Of a DNA stretch of 64,000 nt, positions 41,696-46,054 are shown piece after piece; position 1 is the stretch's first letter; every line of letters begins with the position of its first letter. The translations under genes were made by a program, and so were the position numbers. This stretch comes from Candidatus Schekmanbacteria bacterium (GTDB lineage Bacteria > Schekmanbacteria > GWA2-38-11 > J061). Where the stretch lies: positions 434,001 through 498,000 of the forward strand of contig JACRJM010000004.1 of the NCBI GenBank assembly GCA_016219965.1, read 5' to 3'. The notes beneath the pieces are model-generated. The model had not been told where the DNA came from. It made no database searches and saw nothing but the letters and a program-made list of their open reading frames with translations.

Positions 41696-42544
41696 ATGGG
41701 CGGCGAGAGTTTCGGAAAAATATTCTGGCGTAACTTTACTAAGAACAGGCTTGCACTGCTTGGTGCAGGAGTTGTGATAGTCCTGTTTGTAGTTTCTATC
41801 TTTGCCTCCTATCTCTCATCCTATTCTCCTGATGATATTGATGTGACGCAGATATTGAATCCTCCGAGCAGGGCCCACATATTCGGTACAGACGAACTTG
41901 GAAGGGATGTTTTTACGAGAATCCTTTACGGCTCAAGGATATCACTTAAAGTCGGTTTTGTGGCTGTAGGCATTGCGACATTGATAGGCGTTATACTTGG
42001 AAGTATATCGGGATTCTACGGAAAATGGGTTGACTCGCTTGTGATGAGAGTTGTTGACATCATGCTCTGTTTTCCGTCTTTTTTCCTCATACTTGCAGTG
42101 ATATCAATCCTTGAACCGAGCATATACAACATAATGATAGTCATCGGAGTTACAGGGTGGATGGGTGTGGCAAGGCTTGTGAGGGCCGAGTTTTTGAGTC
42201 TCAAGGAAAGGGACTTTGTCGTGGCTGCAAGGGCGATTGGGGCAAGCAATCTTAAGGTCATGTTCAACCATGTCCTGCCAAATGCAATGGCTCCGGTGCT
42301 TGTGTCTGCGACGCTTGGAGTTGCTGCGGCAGTGCTGACAGAGTCTGCCTTAAGCTTCCTTGGCATCGGTGTACAACCTCCTACTCCAAGCTGGGGGAAC
42401 ATACTCACCGAAGGAAAAGATAATATCGAGATTGCCTGGTGGCTTTCACTGTTTCCGGGCTTTGCAATACTTATAACGGTTTTGTCGTACAATCTTCTTG
42501 GCGAGGGAATACGCGATTCGCTTGACCCGAGACTTAATATTTAA
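41696..42544 (+). CDS. DppC/OppC-type ABC permease
   Basis: A 282-residue second permease subunit. It has the N-terminal OppC anchor helix, the GTDELGRDVFTRILYGSRISL motif, and the EAA loop VVAARAIGASNLKVMFNHVLPN. It ends with GEGIRDSLDPRL, usual for this family. The ATP-binding subunits (DppD/DppF) that normally follow are absent; the next gene is an unrelated fusion enzyme. Confidence 0.94.
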   Translation: MGGESFGKIFWRNFTKNRLALLGAGVVIVLFVVSIFASYLSSYSPDDIDVTQILNPPSRAHIFGTDELGRDVFTRILYGSRISLKVGFVAVGIATLIGVILGSISGFYGKWVDSLVMRVVDIMLCFPSFFLILAVISILEPSIYNIMIVIGVTGWMGVARLVRAEFLSLKERDFVVAARAIGASNLKVMFNHVLPNAMAPVLVSATLGVAAAVLTESALSFLGIGVQPPTPSWGNILTEGKDNIEIAWWLSLFPGFAILITVLSYNLLGEGIRDSLDPRLNI

Positions 42545-42643: not shown

Positions 42644-45526
42644 ATGAAAAAAATAAAACTGCCTGAAAGACTTCAGGGTACGGATGGTGTAAGAGGTCTG
42701 GTTCTTAGATCAGATTCAGCTCGGGTAAAAAATTTATCTCCAGTTGAAGCTTACGTTGAGCATGGTGTAATCACAGAGGAGTTCGCCGAGCTTTATGGAT
42801 ATTGCCTTGGCAAATTTCTTTTAAACAGGAAATTCCTTTTAAGCAGCGATTCCATAGTGGTTGGCTGGGATCCGCGCGATAAAGAAGGAATGGTTGTAAA
42901 TCCATTTATCAGAGGGCTTTCCCGCGCTATAAAAAAAATAATCACCATAGGAATAGTCCCTACTCCTGCTGCGGTTATTTTTATGCAATACAGTGGAGCA
43001 AAAGCTTCTGTTGTTTTAACTGCATCGCACAATCCTCCGGAGCAGAACGGCATAAAAATTTTTCTTGCTCCTCTTGGAATGAAGCTTCTCCCCTCTGATG
43101 AAGCTGAGTTCAGCAGGCTTATCTATAAAACAGATTATTCTAAGGTGAAGAGGATAAAAGCTTTAGCTTCGGTAACAGACATGAGCAGGGAAGCGATTGC
43201 CTGCTTTAAGGGTTTTTTACTTTCGCCTCAGAACAGTTGGATTGAATCGCCGTCATTAGTTTCAAAATATTCCATTTCCATAGATTCATCGAATGGCGCT
43301 TATTCCGGAATATCAGAAGAGATATTTAAAAGCGCGGGGTTTGGCAGAGTTACAGAAACTGCCGGAGACCTAACTAAACCTGTAAACGAAGGGTGCGGTG
43401 TAACTGAGATTGAAAGAAAAAAAGAATGGATGAAAGAGAATATCAAAGATAATATCAATGACGCGCCTGAGATTGTCCACAGTATTTACAGCGAAGCTTA
43501 CAAATTCAAGAAAGAGATAAAAAGTGGTAAGACTATCCTCTCCGGCGTGGTTTTTGATGGCGATGGCGATCGCTTCATGCGTCTTGATTACAATCCTGCC
43601 AGTGATTCAATTTATTTGATGAGCGGTGATAAAAACGCAGCTCTGCTTTGCAGGTATCTTAGCGGCAGATATTTCAGAGGTGCTAAAGATAAGCGGGACG
43701 TGCTTCCGGTTTTGAACACTATAGAGTCTGATGTCAAAATCACATCCTATGCGGAGGCATTGGGATTTAAAAATACAGTTACAGGGATAGGCGATAAATG
43801 GATTTTATTTTACAGCATTTGTCATTTTATAAAAGAAATATTAGATAATTGGAAAACACTTGGTCTTTCGGAAAAAGAGAAAAAATATATTTCTGATTAT
43901 CTTGTCAATGTAAAGAACGGTAAAGGAATGAGCGCTTTTCACCTTTCAGATGTTTTAAATAAAAGCGGGGTTTTATTTTCTGGCGAGAGAAATAAGAGAT
44001 TTGCCGGTCTTCTTTATGGGAAGAAGATAAGATTCGGATTGGCTTACGAAGAGAGCGGCCACGCCATAACAATGGGACTCCTTAAGACTTTAGATTCAGC
44101 GGTTCTTCCTGTCTTTACCGGAAACGGGATAAAAGCGGCATTGAATTCATTTGCCGCAGATGTCGCAGCAACTGCCGGAAAATCTCAGGAAAAAAGATTG
44201 TCAATGCTCAGGCACCCATTTGAAGAGAGCTATAAAAAAACATTTTATGTTTATTACTCGGACCGCAAAAAGTTTACTCACGATAGCGGCTTAAGAATGA
44301 AGCTCAAACAAGCAGCGAAAGCAGTGTTAAAAGGGGACGCAACCCTTTTCTTGAACCGCATTTCGGAAGAAAGAAAAGCTGAGGAACCGGATCTTATTTA
44401 TTACAGCCTGTCAGATGAGAAAGGGAGGAATTGCGGCGCTCTTTATATAAGGAATTCAGGTACCGAAGAAAAAACCCAGATTACCGTTAAATGCAGTAAA
44501 TCAATTTCCGGGAAGATGTGCAGTGCAGGAGAGAACATATCACATATTGCAGGGATTTTACTTAAGTCATTGACTCAACCGAATGCCATTATACAGGGGA
44601 AGATTCTTAATATTCTTTATTATGGTGGGCTTTCTGAAAAGGAACTTAAAAACTCTATGAGTCCCGATGAGATCAGATATTTTTCACGGGTCATTGATGA
44701 TTCGGTAAAAAAAGAAGGATTTATTTCAATGGGTGCAGATGGTTCCGCTAAGCTTACAGAAAAAGGAAGAAGGTTCATTGAAGAGTCTAAGCTAAAAACA
44801 AGAACAGCCTGTGTAATACTGGCTGCAGGGAAGGGAACACGGATGAAATCCCCTCTGCCCAAGGTACTTCATAAGCTGAATAGAAAACCATTGCTTTCAT
44901 ATTCCATAAAGCTTGCAAAAGATTGCGGCATAGACCCTGTTGTAGTGGTTGTTGGTTACAAGGCGAATATGGTTAAAAAAGAGATTGGCTCGAATGGGAT
45001 TAGCTACGCCATGCAAAGGGAACAGCTTGGCACAGGCCATGCGGTCATGCAGTCAGAAAAGGCTCTAAAAAAGTTTGATGGGAATGTACTGATTCTCTAC
45101 GGGGATGTTCCGCTTCTTAGTAAAAAAACAATAATTAGTTTTTTGAATTCGCACCTTAGTTCAGGAACAGAGCTCTCCATATTGACTGCTGATCTTCTAA
45201 ACCCATTTGGTTACGGAAGGATTGTGAGGGACAGTAAAGGTGATTTCAGCAGGATTGTGGAAGAGAAGGACACAACGTCTTCACAGAAAAAAATAAAGGA
45301 GATAAACAGCGGCATATATTGCGTCAGGGCGGACACACTGTTCCATCTGCTTAAAAAACTTAATGATAATAATTCACAGCATGAATACTATCTCACGGAC
45401 ATAGCCGGGCTTTTAAAAAAGGGAGGGAAAAATGTAAACGTTGTAAAAACAAAAAATGCTTTTGAAATAGCCGGTATAAATTCAGTGGAAGAACTTAAAA
45501 GGATAGAAAAATTAAGCAAGGAGTAA
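42644..45526 (+). CDS. fusion of sugar-phosphate mutase (GlmM/PGM-like) and GlmU-type nucleotidyltransferase
   Basis: A 960-residue protein. Residues 1-615 are an alpha-D-phosphohexomutase: GTDGVRG near the start, phosphoserine Ser128 in TASHNPPEQNG, metal loop DGDGDR (305-310), sugar-binding loop EESGH, and the phosphate-binding loop RNSGTEEK. All four active-site elements are intact. Residues about 645-720 look like a small winged-helix-type module (MSPDEIRYFSRVIDDSVKKE..KLTEKGRRFIEES). Residues 722-960 are a nucleotidyltransferase of the GlmU N-terminal type: LAAGKGTRMKSPLPKVLHKL, QREQLGTGHAV, LYGDVPLL. There is no left-handed beta-helix acetyltransferase domain. I infer conversion of a hexosamine 6-phosphate (perhaps already acetylated) to a UDP-sugar on one chain. 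The substrate is unproven. A 21-base dispersed motif lies inside the gene at 44329-44349. Confidence 0.85.
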   Translation: MKKIKLPERLQGTDGVRGLVLRSDSARVKNLSPVEAYVEHGVITEEFAELYGYCLGKFLLNRKFLLSSDSIVVGWDPRDKEGMVVNPFIRGLSRAIKKIITIGIVPTPAAVIFMQYSGAKASVVLTASHNPPEQNGIKIFLAPLGMKLLPSDEAEFSRLIYKTDYSKVKRIKALASVTDMSREAIACFKGFLLSPQNSWIESPSLVSKYSISIDSSNGAYSGISEEIFKSAGFGRVTETAGDLTKPVNEGCGVTEIERKKEWMKENIKDNINDAPEIVHSIYSEAYKFKKEIKSGKTILSGVVFDGDGDRFMRLDYNPASDSIYLMSGDKNAALLCRYLSGRYFRGAKDKRDVLPVLNTIESDVKITSYAEALGFKNTVTGIGDKWILFYSICHFIKEILDNWKTLGLSEKEKKYISDYLVNVKNGKGMSAFHLSDVLNKSGVLFSGERNKRFAGLLYGKKIRFGLAYEESGHAITMGLLKTLDSAVLPVFTGNGIKAALNSFAADVAATAGKSQEKRLSMLRHPFEESYKKTFYVYYSDRKKFTHDSGLRMKLKQAAKAVLKGDATLFLNRISEERKAEEPDLIYYSLSDEKGRNCGALYIRNSGTEEKTQITVKCSKSISGKMCSAGENISHIAGILLKSLTQPNAIIQGKILNILYYGGLSEKELKNSMSPDEIRYFSRVIDDSVKKEGFISMGADGSAKLTEKGRRFIEESKLKTRTACVILAAGKGTRMKSPLPKVLHKLNRKPLLSYSIKLAKDCGIDPVVVVVGYKANMVKKEIGSNGISYAMQREQLGTGHAVMQSEKALKKFDGNVLILYGDVPLLSKKTIISFLNSHLSSGTELSILTADLLNPFGYGRIVRDSKGDFSRIVEEKDTTSSQKKIKEINSGIYCVRADTLFHLLKKLNDNNSQHEYYLTDIAGLLKKGGKNVNVVKTKNAFEIAGINSVEELKRIEKLSKE
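44329..44349 (+). repeat. 21-base dispersed motif, copy 1 (inside the fusion gene)
   Basis: AAAAGGG-GACGCAA-CCCTTTT: 7-base arms with a 7-base loop. Here it is translated as K-G-D-A-T-L-F within the mutase part. Confidence 0.75.
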
Positions 45527-45535
45527 AGAAAGGTC

Positions 45536-46054
45536 ATGACTGCTATATTGCTTATTGACGGCTACAATCTGATTGGAGCCTTCGGTTCGCTTGACAGGGA
45601 TAGTTTAGAAAATCTGAGAAATGACATTATAAAAAAGCTGGCATCATACAAGAAAGTAAAAGGTTCAAATGTAGTGGTTGTTTTTGACGGAGAGAATTCC
45701 GGAGCCGACTCAGAGAGCAGGGACCGGATAAGCGGAATAGATCTCCTGTATTCAAGGCATGGTGAAAAAGCAGATGATGTCATAGTCCGTATGGCAGCTT
45801 CAGGGAAGGGGAAATATGTAATTGTCACCAGTGATAATGATCTTATTTCCCGTTGTTCCTCTTTAGGATGCACTGCCATAACTTCAGGGGAATTCATAGA
45901 CAGGATGGAGCTTGCCGCGGCACTCGATGATGAGTTTGAGGATTATGATGATGGAAACATCTATGATACAAAGAGAATAACAAAGAAAAAAGGGAATGGA
46001 AATAAACTTCCCAAGAAGGAGAGGCAGAGGAAGGCGAAGCTGGAAAAATTTTAA
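45536..46054 (+). CDS. YacP-like NYN-domain RNase
   Basis: A 172-residue protein of the YacP/Rae1 (DUF901) group, a PIN-like NYN nuclease; Bacillus Rae1 cuts mRNA in the ribosomal A site. Acidic metal-site residues are visible in LLIDGYNLIGAF, VVVFDGENSG, GEKADDVIVRM and VTSDNDLIS. The tail is basic. It follows the fusion gene by nine bases and is probably co-transcribed. Its stop codon lies within the stem of the palindrome at 46045-46081. Confidence 0.88.
   Translation: MTAILLIDGYNLIGAFGSLDRDSLENLRNDIIKKLASYKKVKGSNVVVVFDGENSGADSESRDRISGIDLLYSRHGEKADDVIVRMAASGKGKYVIVTSDNDLISRCSSLGCTAITSGEFIDRMELAAALDDEFEDYDDGNIYDTKRITKKKGNGNKLPKKERQRKAKLEKF

What the first reader, a model, noticed from the sequence alone, without database searches (positions are those of the whole stretch)
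42644..45526. One chain joining a phosphohexosamine mutase-like enzyme to a GlmU-type nucleotidyltransferase
Seen: all four mutase elements (Ser128 in TASHNP, DGDGDR, EESGH, RNSGTEE), then a winged-helix-like insert, then a GlmU-type N-terminal domain (LAAGKGTRMKSPLPKV). No acetyltransferase beta-helix is present. Known: bacteria normally make UDP-GlcNAc with separate GlmM and bifunctional GlmU, while the eukaryote-like order is acetylation first, then mutase and uridylyltransferase. Inference: this fusion channels a hexosamine (or GlcNAc) 6-phosphate straight to a UDP-sugar, and acetylation happens before or elsewhere. The middle module could be regulatory.
Basis: partly seen in the sequence, partly recalled or inferred. 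Interest (0 to 1): 0.75.

Follow-up and report, generated by a model that had tools for sequence, protein, structure and literature searches.

The report
Fused GlmM-like mutase and GlmU half
A little-known group of bacteria (Schekmanbacteria) probably makes the cell-wall sugar UDP-GlcNAc with a rearranged enzyme set, in which an unusual, oversized sugar-phosphate mutase is joined in one protein to the nucleotide-transferring half of the standard enzyme GlmU, while the acetylating half is a separate protein encoded elsewhere.

Summary
The fusion is real: a 960-residue ORF, found also in a second genus of the same family. In the sister family the same two genes are separate and overlap, in the same synteny. 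Residues 1 to ~714 belong to a ~700-aa phosphohexomutase family that carries its own C-terminal winged-helix-like domain, so that domain is not a fusion insert. Residues 720-958 are a complete GlmU uridylyltransferase domain. The mutase family occurs in Nitrospinota, SAR324, Coatesbacteria and others, often after glmS and before a stand-alone left-handed beta-helix (LbH) acetyltransferase gene. None of 49 genomes carrying it has a canonical GlmM or bifunctional GlmU above the curated cut-offs; 28 of 52 other genomes have canonical GlmM. The window's genome has GlmS and an LbH acetyltransferase with intact catalytic residues in another operon. Most likely the fusion does steps 2 and 4 of UDP-GlcNAc synthesis, and acetylation of GlcN-1-P happens in trans, as in a split GlmU. 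Direct channelling between the fused domains is therefore unlikely, and the order stays bacterial rather than eukaryote-like. Activities are inferred, not assayed. Verdict: a new variant of a known pathway; the papers searched describe no such fusion.

The parts
42644..45526 (+). Fusion gene: large GlmM-like phosphohexomutase + winged-helix-like domain + GlmU N-terminal uridylyltransferase (960 aa)
42755..44560 (+). Mutase part (res ~38-639), large phosphohexomutase family
   Evidence: Pfam PGM_PMM_I res 38-162; GlmM profile; AlphaFold + Foldseek; family alignment
43019..43036 (+). Phosphoserine loop TASHNP, Ser128
   Evidence: invariant T126 A127 S128 H129 N130 in 34 members
43556..43573 (+). 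Metal-binding loop DGDGDR (res 305-310; DADGDR in most relatives)
44048..44062 (+). Sugar-binding loop EESGH (res 469-473)
   Evidence: E469, G472, H473 invariant
44450..44470 (+). Phosphate-binding loop RNSGTEE (res 603-609)
44573..44785 (+). Winged-helix-like C-terminal domain of the mutase family (res ~644-714)
   Evidence: present in unfused members, G708 of the LTxxG motif invariant; weak matches to MarR 3bj6 (5e-4), HTH_45, HemN_C; helix-rich with a beta wing in the model
44801..45517 (+). GlmU-type uridylyltransferase domain (res 720-958)
   Evidence: 263-267 bits to glmU positions 2-236; ~41% identity to solved GlmU over 238 columns; catalytic motifs kept
44819..44845 (+). Nucleotide-binding signature LAAGKGTRM (res 726-734)
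45536..46054 (+). YacP-like NYN-domain gene, conserved downstream neighbour
   Evidence: PF05991 1e-27; same position in G001, G002, G003
41696..42544 (+). OppC-like ABC transporter permease gene, conserved upstream neighbour (synteny marker only)

Best explanation
A two-domain enzyme of UDP-GlcNAc synthesis. The first ~640 residues convert GlcN-6-P (from GlmS) to GlcN-1-P, replacing canonical GlmM. GlcN-1-P is then acetylated by a separate LbH acetyltransferase (234 aa, encoded beside glmS at C15:119801-120502 of the same genome). The C-terminal GlmU-N domain joins the resulting GlcNAc-1-P to UTP. So a bifunctional GlmU has been split into two proteins, and its uridylyltransferase half has been fused, in one Schekmanbacteria family, to the neighbouring variant mutase. 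The winged-helix-like domain is an old part of the mutase and may regulate it or mediate contacts; its role is unknown. SHOWN by sequence: fusion, family membership, co-localisation, absence of canonical GlmM/GlmU above cut-off, conservation of catalytic residues. INFERRED: substrates, reaction order, physical contact with the acetyltransferase.
For: Fusion in two genera, split overlapping genes in the sister family with the same neighbours. The large mutase follows glmS in 23 of 65 loci with enough upstream sequence and precedes LbH in 37 of 64 with enough downstream sequence; the fullest operons read GlmU-N, [GlmS], 402-aa NTase-LbH, GlmS, large mutase, LbH (L083, L113, L117, L119, L121, L123, L125, L126). 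0 of 49 large-mutase genomes have GlmM above cut-off against 28 of 52 comparison genomes (Fisher p=7e-11, not corrected for kinship; p=0.005 within the same panel only). 0 of 49 have bifunctional GlmU above cut-off; 29 have stand-alone GlmU-N, and all 29 have stand-alone LbH against 10 of the 20 others (p=2e-5). Own genome: 403-aa NTase-LbH, GlmS, LbH 234 aa contiguous on C15. LbH keeps His, Tyr and Asn of the acetyltransferase site in the aligned members, and Lys in the own protein, while the 403-aa protein has Arg and Phe at the His and Tyr positions; His362 is named as key catalytic residue in GlmU (PMC11947611).
Against: No biochemical data. The mutase scores only ~107 bits on GlmM (cut-off 447) and branches outside both GlmM and PMM/PGM on a long branch, so specificity cannot be read from phylogeny. 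B. subtilis PgcA can moonlight as GlmM (PMC6797236), so the 461-aa PMM/PGM of this genome could share the role. Ten large-mutase genomes, mostly SAR324, lack stand-alone LbH and have only the 400-aa protein with His replaced by Arg where examined, so loss of that His may not mean loss of activity. In this genome the mutase is not beside glmS.
Confidence: 0.75

Rival explanations
1. Eukaryote-like order: GlcN-6-P is acetylated first, the mutase acts on GlcNAc-6-P like AGM1, and its product passes directly to the fused uridylyltransferase.
For: The fused domains would then be consecutive steps, the usual reason for a fusion. A weak sequence match of the mutase to AGM1 (2dka, E=5e-5).
Against: The operon contains an LbH acetyltransferase of the GlmU/ST0452 type with its active-site residues intact; that type acts on hexosamine-1-phosphates. 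Of five GNAT hits in the genome (E<=1e-5), the four scanned match RimI, amino-acid N-acetyltransferases or unassigned GNATs. GlmM profiles and structures score far above AGM1.
Confidence: 0.1
2. The fusion makes a different UDP-sugar, and UDP-GlcNAc comes from the 403-aa NTase-LbH protein of the glmS operon together with the 461-aa PMM/PGM acting as GlmM.
For: The 403-aa protein passes the cut-off for bifunctional Arch_glmU (323.8 vs 292.1 bits) and sits beside glmS. PMM/PGM enzymes can moonlight as GlmM (PMC6797236).
Against: The fused NTase is GlmU-N at 263-267 bits with the EEKD and EINSG motifs kept. The 403-aa protein has Arg and Phe in place of catalytic His and Tyr. Elsewhere the large mutase, not the PMM/PGM, is the mutase that directly follows glmS (exception L059, where a PMM/PGM-like gene lies between).
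Confidence: 0.12
3. Annotation or assembly artefact: two genes joined by a frame error.
For: In relatives the two genes overlap in different frames, so one indel would join or split them.
Against: The same junction is open in a second genus at 49% identity; AlphaFold finds both domains intact; no stop codon in 960 codons.
Confidence: 0.02

Closest known systems
GlmM, bacterial phosphoglucosamine mutase (TIGR01455; e.g. 6gyz, 7ojr)
   Same: Fold, four catalytic loops, place after GlmS
   Different: ~270 residues longer counting the C-terminal domain, ~17-20% identity, scores under a quarter of the GlmM cut-off, outside the GlmM clade, winged-helix-like C-terminal domain, fused NTase
GlmU N-terminal domain, GlcNAc-1-P uridylyltransferase (TIGR01173; 1g97, 9dr4)
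   Same: Full domain, ~36-44% identity, catalytic motifs
   Different: No C-terminal LbH acetyltransferase; joined to a mutase instead
ST0452-type archaeal GlmU (TIGR03992; 2ggo, 5z09)
   Same: The stand-alone LbH partner resembles its C-terminal half with His308, Tyr311, Asn331, Lys337 positions kept
   Different: Partner is a free-standing acetyltransferase with no NTase domain; the genome's own two-domain homologue has lost the His and Tyr
AGM1, eukaryotic phosphoacetylglucosamine mutase (2dka)
   Same: Same superfamily; feeds a UDP-GlcNAc pathway
   Different: Only a weak sequence match; no evidence that acetylation precedes the mutase
Response regulator-HD-GYP-GlmU-N fusion beside the large mutase (L087, L053)
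   Same: Stand-alone GlmU-N fused to another protein, next to the same mutase family
   Different: Fusion partner is a signalling module, not the mutase

Membership tests
GlmM (TIGR01455 equivalog) | Score above curated cut-off 447.55 bits | tested here: not met
   ~104-107 bits, two stretches
GlmM (TIGR01455 equivalog) | Phosphohexomutase fold with Ser, DxDxDR, ExSGH and RNSGTE loops | tested here: met
GlmM (TIGR01455 equivalog) | Falls in the GlmM clade | tested here: not met
   GlmM and PMM/PGM rows (bar one long-branch row) group together 100/100 apart from the large family; bootstrap had not settled
GlmM (TIGR01455 equivalog) | Converts GlcN-6-P to GlcN-1-P | not testable with these tools
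   inferred from glmS adjacency and absence of canonical GlmM
GlmU (TIGR01173 equivalog, bifunctional) | N-terminal uridylyltransferase domain | tested here: met
GlmU (TIGR01173 equivalog, bifunctional) | C-terminal LbH acetyltransferase in the same chain; score above 366.85 | tested here: not met
   ORF ends at GlmU position ~239; 267 bits
GlmU acetyltransferase half (the separate LbH 234-aa partner) | Catalytic His, Tyr, Asn, Lys of ST0452/GlmU | tested here: met
AGM1-type eukaryotic pathway | GNA1-like GlcN-6-P N-acetyltransferase present | tested here: inconclusive
   five GNAT hits; four scanned, none matched a GNA1 family, but no GNA1 query was run
Winged-helix DNA-binding domain | Significant match to a winged-helix family | tested here: inconclusive
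   E 7e-5 to 5e-4 in single members or profile search

The most novel reading that the evidence does not exclude
The fusion is a scaffold: the separate LbH trimer docks on it, so that mutase, acetyltransferase and uridylyltransferase form one assembly in which GlcN-1-P and GlcNAc-1-P do not leave, and the winged-helix domain senses product or binds DNA to control the pathway. The ~700-aa mutase would be a distinct, so far uncharacterised class of phosphoglucosamine mutase that replaces GlmM in several phyla.
Probability: 0.15. Interest if true: 0.7.

Novelty: new variant of a known kind. Interest (0 to 1): 0.5.

Why it matters
UDP-GlcNAc synthesis is essential for peptidoglycan and lipopolysaccharide, and GlmM and bifunctional GlmU are usually treated as the bacterial standard. 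Here a set of lineages, including marine nitrite oxidisers (Nitrospinota) and SAR324, appears to run it with a different mutase and a split GlmU. If true, automatic annotation misses GlmM and half of GlmU in these phyla. The fusion joins non-consecutive steps, which makes a test of 'fusion means channelling' possible.

Tried and rejected
Frame error: rejected (second genus). Winged helix as a fusion insert: rejected (present in unfused members). The 403-aa Arch_glmU-type protein as the acetyltransferase: less likely, catalytic His and Tyr replaced, though SAR324 genomes with only this type leave doubt. 443-aa mutase next to the large mutase in L059 as canonical GlmM: 220 bits, below cut-off, groups with PMM/PGM. 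GNA1-like acetyltransferase: none seen among four of five GNAT hits. Plasmid search gave only ordinary GlmU and mutases. Paper searches for ST0452 His308, for GlmM with winged helix, for Nitrospinae GlmM/GlmU and for GlmM-GlmU fusions gave nothing on this fusion. No PAE or coordinates were available, so the distance between active sites was not measured; full-length pTM 0.83 against 0.93 for the mutase alone hints at a flexible joint.

Full report
What is there. The ORF at 42644-45526 (+) encodes 960 residues without a stop. Residues 38-162 match Pfam PGM_PMM_I (1.3e-20); domains II and III match weakly. The closest curated profile is GlmM, at 104-107 bits against a cut-off of 447.55. Residues 722-958 match GlmU positions 2-236 at 263-267 bits. 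AlphaFold models of residues 1-720 (pLDDT 92.7, pTM 0.93) and of the whole chain (93.1, 0.83) give an intact phosphohexomutase fold and an intact GlmU N-domain; best PDB matches are PMM/PGM and GlmM (TMt about 0.8) and GlmU. No beta-helix is present.

The fusion is real and recent. The genome (3.58 Mb, 18 contigs, 98% complete) belongs to the same order as a genome whose gene is identical to that of Candidatus Schekmanbacteria GWA2_38_11. A second genus of the same family (G001) has the fused arrangement, read across two contig ends with the junction inside one ORF. In the sister family (G002, G003) mutase (725-727 aa) and uridylyltransferase (257-261 aa) are separate ORFs that overlap by some 16-25 bases. 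Neighbours are the same: an OppC-like permease upstream and YacP downstream. As the mutase is unfused in all other loci seen, fusion is the derived state (inference).

The middle domain belongs to the mutase. All unfused relatives aligned have the C-terminal region, with an invariant glycine in an LTxxG motif. Its profile resembles winged helices weakly (MarR 3bj6 5e-4; HTH_45 and HemN_C in single members). A regulatory role is a guess.

The large mutase family. A scan of GTDB genomes found at least 183 relatives, 80 kept, in Nitrospinota, SAR324, Coatesbacteria, Tectomicrobia, Schekmanbacteria and others. In a tree it lies apart from GlmM and PMM/PGM (long branches and an unsettled bootstrap, so only the separation should be trusted). 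Neighbourhoods are telling: GlmS immediately upstream in 23 of 65 loci with enough sequence, LbH just downstream in 37 of 64. Fullest operons: GlmU-N, sometimes a second GlmS, 402-aa NTase-LbH, GlmS, large mutase, LbH.

Replacement of GlmM and GlmU. None of 49 large-mutase genomes has a GlmM above its cut-off against 28 of 52 comparison genomes. Fisher p is 7e-11, or 0.005 using only the shared panel; neither corrects for kinship. None of 49 has a bifunctional GlmU above cut-off, 29 have a stand-alone GlmU-N. Stand-alone LbH is in all 29 of these and in 10 of the other 20. This is the pattern expected of a split GlmU.

The rest of the pathway in this genome. C15 carries, in a row, a 403-aa NTase-LbH (Arch_glmU, 323.8 bits, above cut-off), GlmS (603 aa) and a 234-aa LbH protein, that is, the operon of the other phyla minus the mutase. 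The 234-aa protein keeps the residues corresponding to His308, Tyr311, Asn331 and Lys337 of ST0452; the 403-aa protein has Arg and Phe at the first two. The roles of His308, Tyr311, Asn331 and Lys337 in ST0452 are from my own knowledge; a paper held here names Glu348 and His362 as key catalytic residues of GlmU (PMC11947611). Hence the 234-aa protein is the better candidate for the acetyltransferase.

Mechanism, most likely. GlmS makes GlcN-6-P; the mutase half of the fusion gives GlcN-1-P; the free LbH protein acetylates it; the GlmU-N half of the fusion makes UDP-GlcNAc. The fusion therefore joins steps 2 and 4. An assembly in which LbH docks on the fusion would restore a channel, but nothing here shows it.

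Limits. Substrates are inferred. PMM/PGM-type enzymes can act as GlmM (B. subtilis PgcA, PMC6797236), and this genome has one (C15:449278-450552). Ten large-mutase genomes, mostly SAR324, lack stand-alone LbH; those whose 400-aa protein was aligned have Arg for His, so their acetyltransferase is unexplained. Comparison genomes are a broad panel, not a phylogenetically matched one. The paper library is open-access only; absence of a report there is not proof of novelty.

Noticed in passing
L087:3192-5072 (Coatesbacteria) and L053:453-2327 (G037): GlmU-N uridylyltransferase fused behind a response regulator and HD-GYP domain, directly beside the large mutase: a possible signalling link to UDP-GlcNAc synthesis.
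   Followed up: partly
L082, L085, L098, L100, L107, L108 and their genomes (SAR324): These genomes have the large mutase and GlmS but neither stand-alone GlmU-N nor stand-alone LbH above the limits used; only a 400-aa NTase-LbH with Arg for the catalytic His. Their acetyltransferase is unexplained.
   Followed up: partly
L113, L117, L119, L121: Two GlmS-like genes (both ~606 aa) in the same operon, one of them much less similar to the reference GlmS.
   Followed up: no
L111:6959-9465 (Planctomycetaceae) and G090:C169: Large mutase and LbH lie in overlapping long frames; either a frameshift or a mutase-LbH fusion. Not resolved.
   Followed up: no
L158:166-1899 (G000:C7): 578-aa protein joining what looks like an FAD-dependent oxidoreductase to a GNAT domain.
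   Followed up: no
L055:1570-4236 (G000:C15): 889-aa protein that looks like two FAD-dependent oxidoreductase units in tandem.
   Followed up: no
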